From Sphingomonas sp. (lineage in GTDB: Bacteria; Pseudomonadota; Alphaproteobacteria; Sphingomonadales; Sphingomonadaceae), in assembly GCA_025980335.1 (NCBI GenBank), contig JAICXO010000005.1, positions 1 through 42,933 on the forward strand: a stretch of DNA of 42,933 nt, read 5' to 3'. The notes beneath the pieces are model-generated. The model was given only the letters and a program-made list of their open reading frames with translations, was not told the DNA's origin and did no database searches. A program made the translations under genes and the position numbers. Numbering within the stretch: position 1 is the stretch's first letter; every line of letters starts with the position of its first letter. Below, piece by piece: positions 9,979 to 17,193 of this stretch.

Positions 9979-10008
9979 ATCGCGTCCGCCGATTGCACGA
10001 GGAACCAC

Positions 10009-10024
10009 TGTTCGTTTCCGGACA
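10009..10024. promoter_or_regulatory. Putative operator O3 (TGTTCG-TTTC-CGGACA)
   Basis: A third copy of the palindrome with one arm mismatch. It is about 64 bases upstream of the predicted sigma-54 start site of the exporter and about 20 bases upstream of the regulator's GTG start. It can serve as an upstream enhancer for the exporter and as an autoregulatory site for the regulator (inference). Confidence 0.55.
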
Positions 10025-10043
10025 GCTGCGCTACAGACGTAGC

Positions 10044-11417
10044 GTGGCAGAGACATTCAATCTAGCCGTGGTCGTCGACGACGATCCGGACATCGCGCTC
10101 GCGGCTCGGCTCGCATTGCGGGACATGTTCGAGCGTGTGGAGACTCTGAGCTCGCCGGGCGAGCTCCTGCCGCTGCTGAAGCGCGAAAGCCCCGATGCGA
10201 TCCTGCTCGACCTCAACTTCGAGCGCGCGCGCACTGACGGCCGCGAAGGGCTCGGCTGCCTCGGCAAGATCATGGAGATCGATCCCGATGCCGCGGTCGT
10301 GATCATCACCGCGCATGGTGCCGTCTCGATTGCGGTCGAGGCGTTGAAAGCGGGCGCGAGCGACTTCGTCGCCAAGCCGTGGAGCAACGAGCGGCTGGAG
10401 GCGACGGTCCGCAGCGCCGCTGCGCTTCGCAAAAGCCGGGTCGATGCGCGAATCGAGCGCGGCCGCTCGACGGAGCTCGCGTCGGGCCCGGAAACGCCGC
10501 TGCTCGGCAACTCGCCGGCGATGCAGCGGGTGCGGATGCTGATCGAGCGCGCGGCACCGACCGACGCCAATGTGCTGATCCTCGGCGAGAACGGCACCGG
10601 CAAGGAGATTGTCGCGCGGGAGATCCATCGGCTCTCGCGCCGGTCCGATCAGCCGATGGTCGCGATCGATCTCGGCGCCACCAGCGAGAGCTTGTTCGAA
10701 TCCGAGCTGTTCGGGCATGTGAAGGGCGCCTTCACCGGAGCCGCCGGCGAACGGATTGGCAGGCTCAAGGCCGCGGACAGGAGCACGCTCTTCCTCGATG
10801 AGATCGGCAACCTGCCGCTGCATCTCCAGCCGAAGCTGCTGACTGCGCTCGAGCAGCGCCAGGTGCTCCCGGTCGGCGCGAACAAGCCGATCCCGATCGA
10901 CGTCCGGGTGATCGCCGCGACCAACGTGTCCGCGGATCGGCTCGGCGACGAAACGCGCTTCCGGCAGGACTTGTTGTTCCGCCTCAACACCATCGAAATC
11001 GAGCTTCCGCCGCTTCGTCAGCGAAGGGACGACGTCCCGCTCCTGCTCGACCATTACCTGCGGCTCTATGAGCGCAAATATGAAAAGGCCGAGCGCCAGC
11101 TGCCGCCGGCGGTGCTCGAAGCCCTGGTGGAGAACGACTGGCCGGGGAACGTCCGCGCGCTTCGCCACGCGGCCGAGCGCGCGGTGATCATGGCCGAGGG
11201 CGAGCGCTATCGAGCGGACGATTTCCCGCTCGCCTCGCGCGCGCATGGCGGCCCGGCCGTCCCGAGCGCGGGCGAAACGCTGAACCTGGACCAGCTCGAA
11301 AAGCAGATGATCGAACGGGCGCTGAGGATGCATCATTTCAACATCTCGCTCGCCGCCGCCGAGCTCGGACTCAGCCGCGGCGCGCTTTACCGGCGCATGG
11401 AGAAGCATGGACTTTAG
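10044..11417 (+). CDS. NtrC-family sigma-54-dependent response regulator
   Basis: A 457-residue activator. The receiver domain spans about 1-125 (VVVDDDPDIA; phospho-acceptor Asp in ILLDLNF; Lys in VAKPW). The AAA+ domain spans about 145-380 with Walker A GENGTGKE, the GAFTGA sigma-54 contact loop and Walker B LFLDEIGN. A C-terminal Fis-type HTH carries SLAAAELGLSRGALYRRM. GTG at 10044 is preferred because the product then begins MAETFNLAVVVDDD, the usual receiver start; the frame is open back to 9993 but that extension is unconserved-looking. It is divergent from the exporter and overlaps the kinase start by 11 bases, so it is probably phosphorylated by that kinase. Confidence 0.94.
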   Translation: MAETFNLAVVVDDDPDIALAARLALRDMFERVETLSSPGELLPLLKRESPDAILLDLNFERARTDGREGLGCLGKIMEIDPDAAVVIITAHGAVSIAVEALKAGASDFVAKPWSNERLEATVRSAAALRKSRVDARIERGRSTELASGPETPLLGNSPAMQRVRMLIERAAPTDANVLILGENGTGKEIVAREIHRLSRRSDQPMVAIDLGATSESLFESELFGHVKGAFTGAAGERIGRLKAADRSTLFLDEIGNLPLHLQPKLLTALEQRQVLPVGANKPIPIDVRVIAATNVSADRLGDETRFRQDLLFRLNTIEIELPPLRQRRDDVPLLLDHYLRLYERKYEKAERQLPPAVLEALVENDWPGNVRALRHAAERAVIMAEGERYRADDFPLASRAHGGPAVPSAGETLNLDQLEKQMIERALRMHHFNISLAAAELGLSRGALYRRMEKHGL

Positions 11418-12735
11418 GCGCAAGTTCGAGTTCGGACTCGCGTGGCGCACGATCCTCCTCGTCGCGGCGATCCTGCTCGTGGCCAAGGCAGTGTCTGTGC
11501 CGAGCGTGCGCGCCGGCCTGATCGTTGCGGTCCTGATCGCGCTGGCGGCGCTCGCGAGCCTGTGGAACTTCATCAGGCGAACGAACTTCCTCGTTTCGCG
11601 GTTCGTCGAATCGGTTCGTTTCGACGATTATTCGCAGCGCTTCTCCGATCCGAGCGGCGGCGGCTTCGACGTGCTCGGGCAGACGCTCGACGAGGCGCTC
11701 AAGGGCTTGCAGAGGCGCCATGCGGAGGAGACTGCGGAGGTGCGCTATCTCTCCGCGGTCGTCGACGATGCACCGAGCGCGCTTCTGTCGGTGGAGAGCG
11801 ACGGCCGGGTGCACGTGCTGAACAAGGCGGCGCGTCAGCTGTTCGCGCGCCAGCCTCTCAACCGGGCCTCCGACCTCGAGACGCTCGGGCCCGAGCTTGC
11901 AGCCGCGGCGCGCCTGCCGGCGGGGACGCGCAAGATCACCCGGCTGCTGCTCGACGGCGTCCCGCAGAAGGCCATCTTCGCCTCGGCGCAGGTCGCGCGG
12001 CTCGACAGACCGGTCACGATCCTGTCGATCCTTCCGGTGCAGAGCGAGCTCGGGGCGCTCGAGATCGCCGCGCAGGCGGACCTGGTGCGTGTGCTGACCC
12101 ACGAAATCATGAACTCGCTGACGCCGGTGACCTCGCTTGCGCGCACCGGCGCCGACCTGGTCGCGACCGCGGCGCGCGGCGACGACCGGTTCTGCGACGC
12201 GAAAAGCGCGACCGAGACGGTCGCACGGCGCGCGGAAGGGATCCTGCGGTTCGTCGAAAGCTATCGTGAGTTCGCTCAGGCGCCGGAAGTGCATCGCCGC
12301 CCCTTCAAGGCGAAGGCGTGGGCCGACGAGATCATGCGCCTCGCGCTTGCGAACGCCGGCGGCCGCGACATCGACGCGCGGGTCGAGGTGGTGCCCGAGA
12401 CGCTGAGCGTCGACGGCGACGCCGAGCTCCTGTCGCAGGCGGTCCTGAACCTGCTGCGCAACGCAATCCGCGCGACCGCCGACGCGAACGCACCGGTGCT
12501 CGCGCTGGCGCTATCGCGGGAGCCGACCGGCCATTGCCGGATCGAGGTGCGCGACAGCGGCGCCGGCATCCCGGAGGATCGCCGCGAGGACATTTTCCTT
12601 CCCTTCTACACCACCCACAAGGGCGGAAGCGGCGTGGGCCTGAGCTTCTCGAAGCAGGTCGCCCTCGCGCACGGCGGATCGATCTGCGCGCTGACCGCAC
12701 CCGAAGGCGGCGCCAACATCCGGATGGTGATCTGA
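11407..12735 (+). CDS. NtrY-like membrane histidine kinase with minimal periplasmic loop
   Basis: A 442-residue sensor. Two membrane helices (about 14-31 and 36-57) are separated by only about six residues (SVPSVR), so there is no periplasmic sensor domain. A HAMP-like linker and PAS region (about 110-200) follow. The phospho-acceptor is His232 in THEIMNSLTPV. HATPase_c has NLLRNAIRATAD, DSGAGIPE and GGSGVGLSFSKQ. The ATG at 11407 lies inside the end of the regulator gene, so the two are translationally coupled. The short loop matches the architecture of intramembrane-sensing kinases such as BceS, which read the state of a partner ABC transporter. Here the partner would be the divergent MacB-like exporter (inference). 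Confidence 0.92.
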   Translation: MDFRRKFEFGLAWRTILLVAAILLVAKAVSVPSVRAGLIVAVLIALAALASLWNFIRRTNFLVSRFVESVRFDDYSQRFSDPSGGGFDVLGQTLDEALKGLQRRHAEETAEVRYLSAVVDDAPSALLSVESDGRVHVLNKAARQLFARQPLNRASDLETLGPELAAAARLPAGTRKITRLLLDGVPQKAIFASAQVARLDRPVTILSILPVQSELGALEIAAQADLVRVLTHEIMNSLTPVTSLARTGADLVATAARGDDRFCDAKSATETVARRAEGILRFVESYREFAQAPEVHRRPFKAKAWADEIMRLALANAGGRDIDARVEVVPETLSVDGDAELLSQAVLNLLRNAIRATADANAPVLALALSREPTGHCRIEVRDSGAGIPEDRREDIFLPFYTTHKGGSGVGLSFSKQVALAHGGSICALTAPEGGANIRMVI

Positions 12736-12738
12736 TCC

Positions 12739-14466
12739 TCAGCCGAAGGTGAAGGAGAAAGCCTCTGCTCCGGGGTCGAGGAAGGCGATCGTGAAGGTGC
12801 GGTCGCGCACCGACCCCTTCTGGCGGATCAGCTGATAGAGCCGCTGTCCGGTGACCACGCCGGAGCCATCCGGCTTCACGTCCACGCCGGCGTCAGCGCC
12901 AGGAGCGCTGCCGTCGAGCGTGACGCGGAAGCGTACCGGCTTCCCCGTCGACGAGCCGAGCACGAGGTGCAGGTCGCGGGCATGGAAGCGGAACGAAATG
13001 CTCGCGCCGGGCGCGAGCGAGCGCGCGCTCTGCCGCCGATCGATCCATTTCCCACCGAGCGACCATTGATTGAGCGCGAGCGGCGCGGTTGCGTAGTCCT
13101 TCGGCTGGTCTTGCAAGAGGCCGCCCGGGGACGCGAAGCGCTCCGACCGGTAATAGCCGATATAGGTCTCGGGCGAGCCGATTTCGCTAAAGTCCGCCGA
13201 TGCTTCGGCACCGGTCGCTTTCGCGTTCGCCATTCCGCTCGCCGGCGCGTGCCCGGCTTCTGCGAGAAGTTGCCGGATCACCCGCTCCGACATTTCATAT
13301 TCGCCTTCGCCATGGTGGAAGTAGCGGATGCGCCCTTGGGCATCGACGAAGTAATGCGCCGGCCAATACTGGTTGTGGAGCGCGTTCCACAGCACGTATT
13401 TGTTGTCGAGCGCGACGGGGTAGCGGATGCCGAGGTCCTGCACCGCTTTGGCGACGTTCGCCGGATCGCGCTCGAACGCGAACTCGGGTGCGTGGACGCC
13501 GATGATCACCAGCCCATCCTTGCGGTACTTCGCGTCCCATGCCTTGAGGTACGGCAGCGTGCGAAGGCAGTTGATGCAGCTGTAGGTCCAGAAATCGATC
13601 AGCACGACCTTGCCCTTGAGCTGGGCATTGGTGAGCGGCGGGCTGTTAAACCACGGGCCGAGGGCGGCGAGCGACGGAAGCTTGCCGAGCACCGGAAGAA
13701 CGAGCTCGCCCGCGGCATTGGTCCGGGCCGCGCTCTGGTCCATGCCGTGGCTGGCGCCGAGCCGTCGCGCGAGACCGGACTCGAGGCTCGCGGTCTGCGC
13801 GCTCGAGATTTTCGACAGCACCCGCGTGTCGAGGCCGAGCGCGATCGCCGCGACGCCGACGAGGACGAGCACGCCGAGCACCTGACGGATGCGTTCGCTC
13901 GCGCCGAGCGACTTCTTCATCCGCGCGAACAGTTTGCCGCCGATCAGCAGCGCCAGCGCCAGCGATGTCGCTGCGCCCAGCGCATAGGCGAGAAGAAGGA
14001 GGGTCGTGTCGAAGCTCGCCCCCTGGAGCGCGGCGGCGGTGAAAATGATGCCTAGGATCGGACCCGCACAGGGCGCCCACAACAGGCCCGTCGCGACGCC
14101 CAGCACGACGGACGACCAGATGCTGTCCTGCTGGCCTTCCTTCTCGGTCAGCCGCGCGCCGAGTGCCACCAGCGGACGCGTCAGACGATCGGATATGCTC
14201 GGGAACACCAGCGCGATTCCGAACAGCGCCAGGAGGATGAGCGCGGCCCATCGTCCGACTGCATTCGCCCGCACGGCCCAGCCGCCGCCGACTGCCGCGA
14301 GCGTCGCAACGATCGCGAACGTCGCTGCCATCCCGGCGAGCATCGGCAGTGTCGAGCGAACGAACGGCCGGTCTGCGCGGGCGAAGACGAATGGCAGCAC
14401 CGGCAGGATGCATGGGCTGAGGATGGTCAGGATTCCGCCGAGATAGGCGAGGAGCATCAGGAGCAT
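12739..14466 (-). CDS. dipZ: DipZ-like thiol:disulfide protein (CcdA + thioredoxin + C-terminal module)
   Basis: A 575-residue fusion. The N-terminal CcdA/DsbD-type membrane domain (about 1-250) has Cys19 in LSPCILP and Cys133 in WAPCAGP, which carry electrons across the inner membrane. A TlpA-like thioredoxin domain follows with Cys297 and Cys300 (CINC). A C-terminal beta-rich module from about residue 430 is typical of DipZ. It should pass cytoplasmic reducing power to periplasmic disulfides. ATG at 14466 starts the first membrane helix; an in-frame GTG at 14511 would add 15 polar residues. It is convergent with the NtrY-like kinase (3-base gap) and divergent from the fasciclin gene. A matching ECF promoter at 14524-14552 links it to the sigma locus. 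Confidence 0.9.
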   Translation of the reverse strand: MLLMLLAYLGGILTILSPCILPVLPFVFARADRPFVRSTLPMLAGMAATFAIVATLAAVGGGWAVRANAVGRWAALILLALFGIALVFPSISDRLTRPLVALGARLTEKEGQQDSIWSSVVLGVATGLLWAPCAGPILGIIFTAAALQGASFDTTLLLLAYALGAATSLALALLIGGKLFARMKKSLGASERIRQVLGVLVLVGVAAIALGLDTRVLSKISSAQTASLESGLARRLGASHGMDQSAARTNAAGELVLPVLGKLPSLAALGPWFNSPPLTNAQLKGKVVLIDFWTYSCINCLRTLPYLKAWDAKYRKDGLVIIGVHAPEFAFERDPANVAKAVQDLGIRYPVALDNKYVLWNALHNQYWPAHYFVDAQGRIRYFHHGEGEYEMSERVIRQLLAEAGHAPASGMANAKATGAEASADFSEIGSPETYIGYYRSERFASPGGLLQDQPKDYATAPLALNQWSLGGKWIDRRQSARSLAPGASISFRFHARDLHLVLGSSTGKPVRFRVTLDGSAPGADAGVDVKPDGSGVVTGQRLYQLIRQKGSVRDRTFTIAFLDPGAEAFSFTFG

Positions 14467-14523
14467 GTTAGTCCGTTCTGTTCGTCGGCCGGCACCCCCG
14501 CCGGCCTTCACCCCGTCGCCGCA

Positions 14524-14552
14524 GATACGTTTGCGGCCTGCTTATGGACGCA
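14524..14552 (-). promoter_or_regulatory. ECF-type promoter P1 (dipZ side)
   Basis: The minus strand reads TGCGTCCA-N15-CGTATC, with the -35 box at 14545-14552 and the -10 box at 14524-14529. Spacing and both boxes match P2 and P3. The leader to dipZ is about 50 bases and contains a GC hairpin (GGCCGGC arms at 14487-14493 and 14500-14506). Assignment to the locally encoded ECF sigma factor is inference from the three-way match. Confidence 0.6.
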
Positions 14553-14564
14553 GCGGCGACCAAG

Positions 14565-14593
14565 TGCATCCGCTCATCGCATCGCTCCGTATC
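14565..14593 (+). promoter_or_regulatory. ECF-type promoter P2 (fasciclin-sigma-anti-sigma operon)
   Basis: TGCATCCG (14565-14572), a 15-base spacer, then CGTATC (14588-14593), placed 45 bases before the fasciclin start. The -35 octamer is identical to P3 and the -10 to P1. It sits back to back with P1, 12 bases apart, forming a divergent promoter. No similar motif precedes the sigma gene itself, so sigma and anti-sigma are probably read from P2. Confidence 0.65.
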
Positions 14594-14637
14594 TCGTCCC
14601 GCAGCGCATTGAGGCTGCTCACCAAGGAGGAATGATG

Positions 14638-15186
14638 ATGTTGAGTTCTCGAATTGCGCTGGCGCTCGCGGGCGCTGCTTCGCTGTCTGTTGCAAGCATT
14701 GCCATTGCGAACCCGATGGTCGGCGGCGCGGCCATGTATTCGACCCGCAACATCGTCCAGAACGCGGTCAACTCGAAGGACCACACGACGCTGGTCGCGG
14801 CGGTGAAAGCGGCCGGGCTCGTCGACACTTTGTCGGGCAAGGGACCGTTTACCGTGTTCGCGCCAACCAACGAAGCCTTTGCCAAGCTGCCCGCGGGCAC
14901 GGTCGAGAATCTCCTGAAGCCGGAGAACAAGCCGACGCTCGTCAAGATTCTGACCTATCATGTGGTCCCCGGGCGCATCACCGCGCAGCAGATCGCGGCA
15001 ATGGCGGCGAAGCACGGCGGCACTGCAACGCTGAAGACGGTCGAAGGCGAACCGCTGATGCTCCGCAAGGCCGGTGGCAGCTGGTGGGTGATCGACGCGA
15101 AGGGCGACAAGGCGCGGATCACGATCCCGAATGTCATGCAGTCGAACGGCGTCATCCACGTGATCGACACCGTGCTGATGCCCTGA
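14638..15186 (+). CDS. Secreted fasciclin (FAS1) domain protein
   Basis: A 182-residue exported protein with signal peptide MLSSRIALALAGAASLSVASIAIA and one FAS1 domain (about 35-180). Hallmarks are TTLVAAVKAAGLVDTL, the H1-like GPFTVFAPTNEAFAKLP, LLTYHVVPG-like ILTYHVVPGRI, and the C-terminal NGVIHVIDTVLMP. Three consecutive ATGs start at 14632; AAGGAGG at 14624-14630 is 7 bases from the third, so 14638 is preferred. FAS1 proteins act in adhesion or as envelope proteins; MPT70 and MPT83 of Mycobacterium tuberculosis are relatives under SigK control. It is the first gene after promoter P2, followed 71 bases later by the sigma factor. Confidence 0.93.
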   Translation: MLSSRIALALAGAASLSVASIAIANPMVGGAAMYSTRNIVQNAVNSKDHTTLVAAVKAAGLVDTLSGKGPFTVFAPTNEAFAKLPAGTVENLLKPENKPTLVKILTYHVVPGRITAQQIAAMAAKHGGTATLKTVEGEPLMLRKAGGSWWVIDAKGDKARITIPNVMQSNGVIHVIDTVLMP

Positions 15187-15257
15187 CCGGCGGAAGCCCG
15201 GTGACCGCGGCCTGCTTGCTCCCTGTTGGCGGGCCGCCCGGCGGAAGGAGTGCGACG

Positions 15258-15905
15258 ATGGGCAACCTCGCTCGTCGCCTCTCTTCCGCCGGTCCCGCTC
15301 TTTCCTCCTTCGCCTGGAGCAGGCATGAAGCGGAGATGGACCGCAGGGCGGAGTTCGACGCGAGCAGCGGCAGCGGCGAGCTGGTCACGCTGCTCCACGC
15401 GGTCTCGCGCGGCGACCGCGACGCCTTCTTCACGCTCTACCAGCGGACCTCGGCCAAGCTCTACGGCATTTGCCTGCGCCTGCTGCGGAGCGAGGCCGAA
15501 GCGCAGGAGGCGCTTCAGGACGCCTATGTGCTGGTATGGCAGAAGGCTGCGCAGTTCGACGGCGCCAAGGCAAGCGCCATCACCTGGCTTTCGACCGTTG
15601 CACGCAACAAGTCGATCGACCGCCTCCGCCGCCGCACTCCCGTATCCGACGCTATCGAAAGCGCCGCGGACGTTGAGGACGACAGCCCTTCTGCGTTCGA
15701 GGTCGTCGCAAGCGCGCAAGATGCGGCGAGGCTCGGCCATTGTCTCGAGGAGCTCGACGAGCGTGCACGCGCGATGATCCGCGCCGCCTTCCTCGACGGC
15801 GCGACCTATCCCGACCTGGCCGAGCGCGAGCAGGTACCGCTCGGCACGATGAAGAGCTGGATCCGCCGCGGGCTGCAGCGGCTCCGCGGGTGCCTGGAAC
15901 GATGA
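15258..15905 (+). CDS. ECF RNA polymerase sigma factor (SigK/RpoE-like)
   Basis: A 215-residue group IV sigma factor. Sigma region 2 (about 45-110) contains DAFFTLYQRTSAKLYGICLR, EAQEALQDAYVLVWQKA and ITWLSTVARNKSIDRLRR. Sigma region 4 (about 150-210) contains LDERARAMIRAAFLDGATYPDLAE and LGTMKSWIRRGLQRLR. ATG at 15258 is chosen because GGAAGGAG lies 7 bases upstream; the core domain would also allow ATG at 15336. The stop overlaps the anti-sigma start (ATGA), so the pair is translationally coupled. It probably drives promoters P1, P2 and P3, giving positive autoregulation through P2 (inference). Confidence 0.93.
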   Translation: MGNLARRLSSAGPALSSFAWSRHEAEMDRRAEFDASSGSGELVTLLHAVSRGDRDAFFTLYQRTSAKLYGICLRLLRSEAEAQEALQDAYVLVWQKAAQFDGAKASAITWLSTVARNKSIDRLRRRTPVSDAIESAADVEDDSPSAFEVVASAQDAARLGHCLEELDERARAMIRAAFLDGATYPDLAEREQVPLGTMKSWIRRGLQRLRGCLER

Positions 15906-16642
15906 CCGACGAACGCGACATCGCCGACGAGCCCGGCGATCTGGCTGCCGAATATGCGCTCGGCGTGCTGACCGGCGAAGAGCTGCGACGCGCGCGGGCG
16001 CTGGAGCGCACCGATGTCCAATTCCGTGCCGACGTCGCGCGCTGGTCGGGCCGACTCGCGCCGATGCTCGACGATGTGGCGCCGGCCCCGCCGCCGTCGA
16101 GTGCGTGGGCGGGGATCCAAGAGCGGCTCGGCATGCCGGACGGCGGCAATGTCGTTCAGCTCCAACGCCGGGTGAATCGCTGGCGCGGCATGACCGCGGC
16201 GATGAGCGCTTTGGCCGCGTGCCTTGCCATCTTCATCGTCGTGCGCCCTCCCGCTCCGCCGCAACCTGCGCAGAGCCCCGCGCCTGCCGCTCGGCCGGCA
16301 GCCGAGCCGCTGCTCGCGATGCTCGGCAACGACGGGCAGGGCACCAAGGTGGTTGCGGCATGGGATCCCGCCGCTCAGCGGCTGGTGCTCGCGGTCACCG
16401 GCAACATGCGCTCCGACCCGAACCATTCGCACGAGCTGTGGGTGATTCCGCCGGGAGGGAAGCCGCGCTCGCTTGGCACCATGGGCTCGCAAAAGCAGAT
16501 GCATATGCAGCTCGCCGACGCGCTCGCGCAGCTGCTTCAGCAAGGCGCGACGATCGCGATCTCGGTCGAGCCCCCCGGCGGGTCGCCGACCGGAGCGCCG
16601 ACGGGGCCCGTCGTCGCCTCGGGAGCGCTGACGAAAGCCTAA
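15902..16642 (+). CDS. Anti-sigma factor, RskA/anti-sigma-K family
   Basis: A 246-residue inner-membrane protein. The cytoplasmic sigma-binding region (about 1-90) contains LAAEYALGVLTGEELRRA, a single membrane helix spans about 96-115 (MTAAMSALAACLAIFIVV), and a periplasmic RskA C-terminal domain carries HELWVIPPGGKPRSLG and IAISVEPPGGSPTGAPTGPVVASG, the family signature. It should hold the ECF factor inactive until an envelope signal triggers release. ATG at 15902 overlaps the sigma stop by four bases. The family, the fasciclin neighbour and dipZ together match the SigK-RskA setting of mycobacteria. The stop lies 7 bases before promoter P3. Confidence 0.93.
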   Translation: MTDERDIADEPGDLAAEYALGVLTGEELRRARALERTDVQFRADVARWSGRLAPMLDDVAPAPPPSSAWAGIQERLGMPDGGNVVQLQRRVNRWRGMTAAMSALAACLAIFIVVRPPAPPQPAQSPAPAARPAAEPLLAMLGNDGQGTKVVAAWDPAAQRLVLAVTGNMRSDPNHSHELWVIPPGGKPRSLGTMGSQKQMHMQLADALAQLLQQGATIAISVEPPGGSPTGAPTGPVVASGALTKA

Positions 16643-16648
16643 GCCGCA

Positions 16649-16677
16649 TGCATCCGCGAGGGCCGCTCCCTCGTATA
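16649..16677 (+). promoter_or_regulatory. ECF-type promoter P3 (msrB)
   Basis: TGCATCCG (16649-16656), exactly 15 bases, then CGTATA (16672-16677). It lies between the anti-sigma stop and msrB. The predicted leader is only about 15 bases and begins at the GAAGGAG ribosome site. The -35 octamer is identical to P2. Confidence 0.62.
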
Positions 16678-16698
16678 TGCGGGTGAAGGAGCGTGACA

Positions 16699-17193
16699 AT
16701 GAGCAGTGAAGCCGTTTCCCGCCGGTCGTTCATCGGCCTTGCCGGAGTCGCGAGCGCCGGATTGCTGCTTTTCGGCCGTTCGCAGGGCTCGGCAGCCCCG
16801 ATGCATTTCGCGGTCGTCCGAAGCCCGGCCGACTGGAAGCACGAGCTTGGGCCGCAACGCTACGCGGTCCTGCGCGAAGCGGCGACCGAGCCGCCCTTTT
16901 CGAGCCCGCTGCTGAAGGAGCACCGCAAGGGAACGTTCGTATGCGCCGGGTGCGCGAACGCCTTGTTCAGCTCGGCGACGAAGTTCGAAAGCGGCACCGG
17001 CTGGCCGAGCTTCTGGAAGCCGCTCCCGCGGGCGGTCGTCACGCGGCCCGACCACAGCCTCGTGTTCGAGCGCACCGAAGTGCTGTGCGCTCGCTGTGGC
17101 GGCCATCTCGGGCACGTGTTCGACGACGGGCCGAAGCCCACCGGTCTGCGCTACTGCATGAACGGTTTGTCGCTGAGCTTCAAACCGGCGTGA
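16699..17193 (+). CDS. msrB: Tat-exported peptide-methionine (R)-S-oxide reductase
   Basis: A 164-residue protein with a twin-arginine signal (SRRSFIGLAG, residues 7-16) and an MsrB domain (about 45-160). Zinc is held by Cys82/Cys85 and Cys130/Cys133; the catalytic Cys is Cys153 in RYCMNG. GTGWPSF and HLGHVFDDGP are family signatures. It reduces methionine-R-sulfoxide in exported proteins. ATG at 16699 is chosen over an in-frame GTG at 16693 because GAAGGAG at 16685-16691 is 7 bases away. The resolving electrons may come from the DipZ-like protein, which shares the predicted promoter type (inference). Confidence 0.94.
   Translation: MSSEAVSRRSFIGLAGVASAGLLLFGRSQGSAAPMHFAVVRSPADWKHELGPQRYAVLREAATEPPFSSPLLKEHRKGTFVCAGCANALFSSATKFESGTGWPSFWKPLPRAVVTRPDHSLVFERTEVLCARCGGHLGHVFDDGPKPTGLRYCMNGLSLSFKPA

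What the first reader, a model, noticed from the sequence alone, without database searches (positions are those of the whole stretch)
12739..17193. SigK/RskA-like redox regulon with three matched ECF promoters
Seen: TGCRTCCR-N15-CGTAT occurs three times with identical 15-base spacing: before dipZ (14524-14552, minus), before the fasciclin-sigma-anti-sigma operon (14565-14593) and before msrB (16649-16677). P1 and P2 lie back to back. Known: in Mycobacterium tuberculosis SigK, held by RskA, controls the fasciclin proteins MPT70/MPT83 and dipZ. Inference: the same module exists in this proteobacterium with a Tat-exported MsrB added, forming an extracytoplasmic thiol and methionine repair response in which DipZ may supply electrons to MsrB.
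Basis: partly seen in the sequence, partly recalled or inferred. Interest (0 to 1): 0.74.

Follow-up and report, generated by a model that had tools for sequence, protein, structure and literature searches.

The report
Sigma-controlled envelope methionine repair regulon
A sigma factor with a membrane brake appears to switch on a set of exported proteins that repair oxidised methionine outside the cytoplasm, together with the membrane protein that probably powers them, and parts of this circuit recur in related bacteria.

Summary
The three sites are exact; a motif model trained only on relatives ranks them first to third in the window, far above the rest. The held genome (83% complete) has four exact sites; the fourth precedes an exported MsrA on another contig. 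Each exact site precedes dipZ, fasciclin-sigma-RskA, Tat-type MsrB or MsrA.

The core is TGCATCC-N16-CGTA. It precedes fasciclin in 52 of 56 related loci. Before exported msrB this core is seen in 8 of 65 genomes with RskA and 0 of 45 without; a TGA variant in 14 and 1; a TGT variant, perhaps another sigma's, in 6 and 5. Elsewhere dipZ often lies in msrB-dipZ-msrA clusters (34 of 80), which supports DipZ as electron source.

Best reading: a SigK/RskA-like switch for envelope methionine-sulfoxide repair. The design is known with other ECF types (EcfF-OsrA, RpoE2-HrsE); with SigK/RskA my searches found no report. New variant of a known kind; no expression data.

The parts
12739..14466 (-). dipZ: CcdA/DsbD-like membrane domain, TlpA/thioredoxin-like domain with CXXC (YSCINC), C-terminal domain (start 14466, or upstream GTG 14511)
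   Evidence: 2hyx Protein dipZ, E 7.9e-60; both membrane-domain Cys (SPC, APC) and the CXXC invariant in 7 aligned DipZ
14525..14552 (-). P1, ECF-type promoter before dipZ: TGCGTCC-N16-CGTA
   Evidence: matrix score 21.4, third in the window
14565..14594 (+). P2, ECF-type promoter before fasciclin-sigma-rskA: TGCATCC-N16-CGTATCT, back to back with P1
   Evidence: 30.2, first in the window; trailing CT as in the relatives' fasciclin promoters
14632..15186 (+). fasciclin-domain protein with a signal-peptide-like N terminus (by eye)
   Evidence: PF02469 E 3.5e-37
15258..15905 (+). SigK-like ECF sigma factor (start codon uncertain); Cys162 and Cys212 align with M. tuberculosis SigK Cys133 and Cys183
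15902..16642 (+). RskA-type anti-sigma factor, overlapping the sigma gene by 4 bases
   Evidence: PF10099 E 1e-25; NF052375 102 bits, cut-off 100
16649..16676 (+). P3, ECF-type promoter before msrB: TGCATCC-N16-CGTA
   Evidence: 22.5, second in the window
16693..17193 (+). msrB: methionine-R-sulfoxide reductase with twin-arginine N terminus (SRRSFIG, by eye); ATG at 16699 is the likelier start
   Evidence: PF01641 E 1.1e-47, TIGR00357 above cut-off; an RR pair near the N terminus in 99 of 110 msrB copies by a crude pattern

Best explanation
It is an extracytoplasmic oxidative-damage response. The SigK-like sigma is held at the membrane by the RskA-type anti-sigma factor. An oxidant signal in the envelope, and possibly oxidation of the two conserved sigma cysteines, frees it. 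Through TGCATCC-N16-CGTA promoters it transcribes its own operon with a fasciclin protein (positive feedback), Tat-exported MsrB, exported MsrA encoded elsewhere, and DipZ. DipZ passes electrons from cytoplasmic thioredoxin through its membrane cysteines and its periplasmic CXXC to MsrB and MsrA, which reduce methionine sulfoxide in envelope proteins. Shown by sequence: the genes, the promoter-like sites, their restriction to these four units in the held genome, and conservation of the site before fasciclin. Inferred: recognition by this sigma, the signal, the electron route, the role of the fasciclin protein.
For: Four exact sites in the held genome, one just before each unit; the fourth gene is PF01625 MsrA. 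A matrix trained without the window finds the three window sites first to third and scores the msrA site 20.8. Motif before fasciclin in 52 of 56 loci, against about 2.6 of 56 in shuffled sequence and 2 of 80 before sigK. Exported msrB: TGC-type core in 8 of 65 RskA genomes and 0 of 45 others (own genome left out: Fisher 0.04); TGA-type 14 and 1; matrix score 11 or more 27 of 65 (26 of 64 without the own genome) and 0 of 45 (Fisher 8.6e-8), 19 of 42 and 0 of 33 genera. TGMAWCC-N16-CGTANCT in 199 genomes: 137 hits in 97 with RskA, 13 in 102 without, backward control 12 in all; 53 within 2.5 kb of rskA, 13 before msrB, 12 before msrA. msrB-dipZ-msrA in 34 of 80 GTDB dipZ loci. In one of these 80, a Sphingomonas MAG (L250), the motif (25.0) precedes msrB-dipZ and the genome has RskA. 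Both redox cysteines of SigK are kept (PMC8103513 passages).
Against: No expression data. None of the 9 other dipZ loci of the family has a promoter-placed site. Of the 27 msrB sites found by the matrix many have TGA or TGT in place of TGC; the TGT type (6 of 65 with RskA, 5 of 45 without) resembles the ECF16 promoter TGTAACC-N16-CGAA quoted in PMC3420878, so part of the msrB signal may belong to another sigma. At looser matrix cut-offs RskA-negative genomes also score (3 at 8, 1 at 9 and 10). 38 of 65 RskA genomes show no matrix site before the msrB examined. A Rhodanobacter MAG (L239) has a strong site (25.6) 90 bases before dipZ but no RskA was found in it; G286, also without detected RskA, has one before msrA. 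72 of 150 extended hits lie elsewhere. RpoE-ChrR-like sigmas use TGATCC-N16-CGTA. Kinship only partly controlled; genome 83% complete.
Confidence: 0.8

Rival explanations
1. The promoters are read mainly by another ECF sigma, for example a ChrR-controlled RpoE (TGATCC-N16-CGTA) or an ECF16 sigma of the EcfF type; the SigK-like pair is only one more target.
For: Motif similarity (PMC5507510 passages; PMC3420878 passages); R. sphaeroides RpoE is nearly as good a match to the sigma as SigK (100.7 against 103.6 bits); TGTAACC-type sites before msrB are not tied to RskA (6 of 65 and 5 of 45); site without RskA in L239.
Against: All four own-genome sites are of the TGC type, which before msrB was seen only with RskA (8 of 65, 0 of 45); 53 of 150 extended hits lie by rskA itself and 137 of 150 in RskA genomes; the anti-sigma matches only RskA_C in Pfam.
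Confidence: 0.13
2. A true regulon, but DipZ serves other envelope thiol clients and does not feed MsrB or MsrA.
For: In mycobacteria dipZ is co-regulated with fasciclins, and no msr gene is in the regulon list seen (PMC10540498 passages); 33 of 80 GTDB dipZ loci have neither msrB nor msrA within the stretch held.
Against: msrB-dipZ-msrA in 34 of 80 loci; msrB directly before dipZ in G092 (twice) and G085.
Confidence: 0.25
3. Chance: a loose motif in a G+C-rich genome picked out by eye.
For: With 2 mismatches the window count (7) is not unusual against 3.7 expected.
Against: Independent matrix ranking, zero backward-control hits for the exact pattern in the own genome, conservation before fasciclin.
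Confidence: 0.01

Closest known systems
SigK-RskA regulon of Mycobacterium tuberculosis / M. bovis
   Same: RskA_C anti-sigma, SigK as closest solved sigma, two redox cysteines, fasciclin proteins and dipZ among the targets (PMC10540498, PMC7509140 and PMC8103513, passages)
   Different: MsrB and MsrA carry the promoter here and are not in the mycobacterial list seen in PMC10540498; sigma below the curated SigK cut-off; different gene order
EcfF-OsrA of Bradyrhizobium japonicum (ECF16)
   Same: ECF/anti-sigma pair controlling three predicted methionine sulfoxide reductases with a periplasmic thioredoxin and a DsbD-like protein; the authors speculate that these feed periplasmic Blr7043 (PMC3420878, passages)
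   Different: OsrA is a six-helix DUF1109 protein; promoter GTAAC-N14-15-CG; the word fasciclin does not occur in its main text
RpoE2-HrsE of Haemophilus influenzae
   Same: ECF sigma controls periplasmic MsrAB under hypochlorite stress (PMC7907618, abstract and passages)
   Different: 67-aa cytoplasmic anti-sigma; the words DsbD and CcdA do not occur in its main text
RpoE-ChrR of Rhodobacter sphaeroides and PSPTO_1043
   Same: similar promoter TGATCC-N16-CGTA (PMC5507510 passages); a fasciclin gene (RSP_1409) in the R. sphaeroides RpoE regulon table (PMC7074977 passages)
   Different: ChrR-type anti-sigma; here RskA_C only. The R. capsulatus rpoE-chrR locus is described as SigK-RskA-like and may be the nearest studied relative

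Membership tests
SigK/RskA (ECF18/19-type) system | sigma closest to SigK among sigmas of known structure | tested here: met
   4nqw SigK best, 103.6 bits; RpoE 2q1z close behind at 100.7
SigK/RskA (ECF18/19-type) system | curated SigK subfamily cut-off (NF007228) | tested here: not met
   147.4 bits against 226; two other sigma models score higher, also below cut-off; hence 'SigK-like', not SigK
SigK/RskA (ECF18/19-type) system | two conserved sigma cysteines (Cys133, Cys183) | tested here: met
   aligned at Cys162 and Cys212, each in 71 of 81 aligned sigmas
SigK/RskA (ECF18/19-type) system | adjacent anti-sigma with RskA_C domain | tested here: met
   PF10099 91 bits, cut-off 29.4
SigK/RskA (ECF18/19-type) system | RskA spans the membrane and modulates the sigma | not tested
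   one hydrophobic stretch near residues 97-115 seen by eye; no topology program or interaction test
SigK/RskA (ECF18/19-type) system | fasciclin and dipZ transcribed by the sigma | tested here: inconclusive
   promoter-like site before both; transcription not testable here
SigK/RskA (ECF18/19-type) system | formal ECF group assignment | not tested
   no ECF group models at hand
RpoE-ChrR (ECF11) | ChrR-type (zinc, cupin) anti-sigma (definition recalled) | tested here: not met
   only RskA_C found by Pfam
RpoE-ChrR (ECF11) | promoter TGATCC-N16-CGTA | tested here: inconclusive
   here TGCATCC-N16-CGTA: same -10 and same distance from CC, one base more in the -35
EcfF-OsrA (ECF16) | DUF1109 anti-sigma and GTAAC -35 | tested here: not met
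   only RskA_C in the anti-sigma; own-genome sites are TGC[AG]TCC
MsrB | SelR domain and equivalog-domain model | tested here: met
   PF01641 and TIGR00357 above cut-off
MsrA (fourth site, outside the window) | PMSR domain | tested here: met
   PF01625 174.6 bits, cut-off 23.7
DipZ | CcdA/DsbD membrane part, TlpA-like domain, C-terminal domain | tested here: met
   PF02683, PF00578, PF17991 above cut-off; 2hyx match

The most novel reading that the evidence does not exclude
SigK/RskA-type switches are, at root, envelope methionine-sulfoxide repair responses. The fasciclin proteins they control (the MPT70/MPT83 kind) are clients or sacrificial methionine carriers of that repair, and the mycobacterial SigK regulon with its fasciclins and DipZ is a trimmed form of this response. 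The MVGGAxM segment near the start of the mature fasciclin (25 of 56 relatives) would be a candidate oxidation site.
Probability: 0.2. Interest if true: 0.8.

Novelty: new variant of a known kind. Interest (0 to 1): 0.6.

Why it matters
What fasciclin proteins and DipZ do under SigK/RskA control is, as far as I recall, unsettled. Here the same cast sits with methionine-sulfoxide reductases under one promoter type, and msrB-dipZ-msrA clusters in other Proteobacteria point to DipZ as the electron donor of unfused periplasmic MsrA and MsrB. That gives a direct, testable function to a widespread sigma/anti-sigma family.

Tried and rejected
Methionine cluster in the periplasmic part of RskA as oxidation sensor: not conserved in 81 sequences, dropped. 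A first reading that the dipZ promoter exists only in the window was withdrawn: none of the 9 other family dipZ loci has it in promoter position (best 8.1, inside coding sequence), but 5 of 80 GTDB dipZ loci have a matrix score of 11 or more within 1 kb before dipZ (controls: reversed 0, opposite strand 1): L239 (25.6) and L250 (25.0) strongly, L256, L262 and L295 weakly with GTAACC-type -35. RskA was found in 6 of 16 such genomes tried, including that of L250 but not those of L239, L256, L262, L295. sigK autoregulation as a family rule: motif before sigK in only 2 of 80. Motif matches inside dipZ coding sequence (exact in L237, L280, L289; 2 mismatches at 14385-14412 here) follow the conserved CILPVLPFV codons and were not counted. 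A weaker own-genome site (C103:7780, GGTA, score 16.3) was not accepted; within the own genome the matrix was run on the window and loci L004-L009 only, not on the whole genome. A search with the recalled mycobacterial -35 string found no paper holding it in its list, so no comparison with that promoter is claimed. Searches for dipZ with methionine sulfoxide (1 paper, unrelated by title) and RskA with methionine sulfoxide (21 papers, 15 listed, by title only PMC7074977 bears on this) gave no earlier report of this regulon in the held library; others (3 papers; 144 papers, 25 listed; 7 papers) neither, judged from the listings.
Full report
OBSERVATION. The window holds three exact copies of TGCRTCCR-N15-CGTAT: 14525-14552 (minus) before dipZ, 14565-14592 before a fasciclin gene followed by a sigma and an anti-sigma gene, and 16649-16676 before msrB. 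P1 and P2 are back to back with 12 bases between them. The held genome (2,369,772 bases, 151 contigs, 83% complete) has exactly four exact sites and none for the pattern read backwards. The fourth, contig C132 11915-11942, begins 52 bases before the start of a gene whose product has a signal-peptide-like N terminus (by eye) and a PMSR (MsrA) domain. TGCRTCC-N16-CGTA still gives only these four.

GENES. DipZ has a DsbD-type membrane part, a TlpA-like domain with CXXC and the C-terminal domain found in M. tuberculosis DipZ. Fasciclin, sigma, RskA_C and MsrB are from Pfam and NCBIfam. The sigma's best solved relative is SigK of M. tuberculosis, closely followed by RpoE of R. sphaeroides; it lies below the curated SigK cut-off. 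Cys162 and Cys212 align with SigK Cys133 and Cys183 and are each kept in 71 of 81 aligned sigmas. PMC7509140 (passages) gives these cysteines as 94% conserved in ECF18, 56% in ECF19 and under 2% in other families; PMC8103513 (passages) says that they form an oxidant-dependent disulfide controlling SigK.

PROMOTER BEFORE FASCICLIN. RskA was found in 97 of 199 genomes of the family. I fetched 80 match rows from 77 genomes. All 80 have a sigma relative next to rskA and 56 have a fasciclin relative, 53 of them on the strand of rskA and after it, unlike the window, where the fasciclin comes first. The motif scores at least 10 of 12 before the fasciclin in 52 of 56 (gap 16 in 48), against about 2.6 of 56 in shuffled sequence, and in 2 of 80 before sigK. 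The refined consensus is TGCATCC-N16-CGTA-N-CT. A matrix from 52 of these promoters, window excluded, ranks the window sites first (30.2, P2), second (22.5, P3) and third (21.4, P1), next 7.5; the msrA site scores 20.8. P3 and the msrA site lack the trailing CT.

MSRB AND MSRA IN RELATIVES. In 110 genomes (best msrB copy each) the matrix finds a site (11 or more) in 27 of 65 with RskA and 0 of 45 without; at 10, 28 and 1; at 8, 31 and 3; reversed control 1. Leaving out the own genome, Fisher at 11 is 8.6e-8. The 27 fall in 19 genera, about 34-95 bases before the gene; by genus 19 of 42 and 0 of 33; of 13 genera with both kinds, 5 (the own genus among them) show the site only with RskA and none the reverse. 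Split by -35 type the picture is less uniform: the fasciclin-type core ([CT]GC[AG][AT]CC) 8 of 65 and 0 of 45 (Fisher 0.04 without the own genome); TGA-type 14 and 1; TGT-type 6 and 5. TGC and TGA versions occur at what looks like the same promoter in close relatives (G219 and G268; G171 and G225) and before the acyltransferase gene (L426 against L416, L419, L421, L428), so they are probably one class. The TGT type resembles the ECF16 promoter and is not tied to RskA. TGMAWCC-N16-CGTANCT gave 150 hits in 199 genomes: 137 in the 97 with RskA, 13 in the 102 without (4 of these 13 TGCATCC, my count), backward control 12 (my count); 53 lie within 2.5 kb of rskA, 13 before msrB, 12 before msrA (162-418 bases before the matched part), 72 elsewhere. 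Other downstream genes include further fasciclins, PF01553 acyltransferases (five genomes by eye, two tested), LysR regulators, a protease with trypsin-like and PDZ domains, a SOUL protein and a DUF2147 protein.

DIPZ. In the family, 9 of 199 genomes have DipZ at E 1e-60. In G092 (twice) and G085 msrB lies directly before dipZ. Of 80 GTDB dipZ loci (the best 80 of 507 relatives, itself a capped list), 42 have msrB, 41 msrA, 36 both, 33 neither; 34 have msrB within 300 bases before and msrA within 400 bases after dipZ; 69 have more than 5 kb on both sides. None shows a fasciclin, sigma or RskA relative at E 1e-8 with the window proteins. Two carry a strong site: L250, a Sphingomonas MAG, before msrB-dipZ, with RskA in its genome; and L239, a Rhodanobacter MAG, 90 bases before dipZ, without detected RskA. 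So in the window lineage genes that elsewhere form an operon are separate units sharing a promoter type. Whether the resemblance to the mycobacterial mpb83-dipZ-mpb70 locus (PMC10540498, passages) is descent or independent assembly is open.

MECHANISM. Release of the sigma from RskA by envelope oxidants, transcription of fasciclin-sigma-rskA, msrB, msrA and dipZ, and electron flow thioredoxin to DipZ to MsrB and MsrA are the most economical reading. The signal and the electron flow are inferred. The nearest studied parallels are EcfF-OsrA, with three MetSO reductases and a proposed DsbD-like electron route (PMC3420878, passages), and RpoE2-HrsE with MsrAB (PMC7907618, abstract and passages). 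R. capsulatus has a SigK-RskA-like locus named rpoE-chrR, and singlet oxygen raises its transcripts together with MsrA1, MsrA2, MsrB1 and MsrB2 (PMC7074977, passages); direct control was not seen in those passages.

LIMITS. No expression data; genome incomplete; RskA presence judged at E 1e-8; kinship only partly controlled; the matrix cut-off of 11 was chosen after seeing the scores; taxon names are not given for the G genomes, so the Sphingomonadales assignment was not checked. My confidence went from 0.82 to 0.80.

Noticed in passing
G000 contig C103:7780-7807 (L008:1501): A weaker promoter-like site (TGCATCC-N16-GGTA, matrix score 16.3) before what looks by eye like a small lipoprotein; possible fifth target in the genome.
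   Followed up: partly
L416, L419, L421, L426, L428: In five RskA-positive genomes the extended motif lies 38-58 bases before an acyltransferase-like gene (PF01553 in the two tested), hinting at membrane lipid repair in the same regulon.
   Followed up: partly
L223-L302 (for example L224, L226, L275, L299): msrB-dipZ-msrA clusters in 34 of 80 dipZ loci, pointing to DipZ as electron donor of unfused periplasmic Msr enzymes.
   Followed up: partly
msrB upstream regions, for example L187, L330, L333, L336, L377: A TGTAACC-N16-CGTA version before exported msrB occurs with and without RskA (6 of 65, 5 of 45); perhaps an ECF16-type promoter, so msrB may have changed hands between sigma factors.
   Followed up: partly
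L239:5911-5940 (Rhodanobacter MAG): A strong site 90 bases before dipZ in a genome where no RskA was found; another sigma may read it, or RskA is missing from the assembly.
   Followed up: partly
window 14632-15186 and 56 relatives: Fasciclins of this group often carry MVGGAxM near the start of the mature protein (25 of 56).
   Followed up: partly
window 9993-12735: Next to dipZ lie an AAA+ response-regulator-like ORF (by eye) and a histidine kinase-like ORF (HATPase_c) in tandem; not linked to the motif.
   Followed up: no
window 14385-14412; L237, L280 and L289 at 6055: Codons of the conserved DipZ segment CILPVLPFV mimic the promoter motif, a trap for pattern scans.
   Followed up: yes
G286 C1:1103680-1103709: A genome with no RskA at the cut-off still has the motif before msrA; RskA may be diverged or missing from the assembly.
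   Followed up: no
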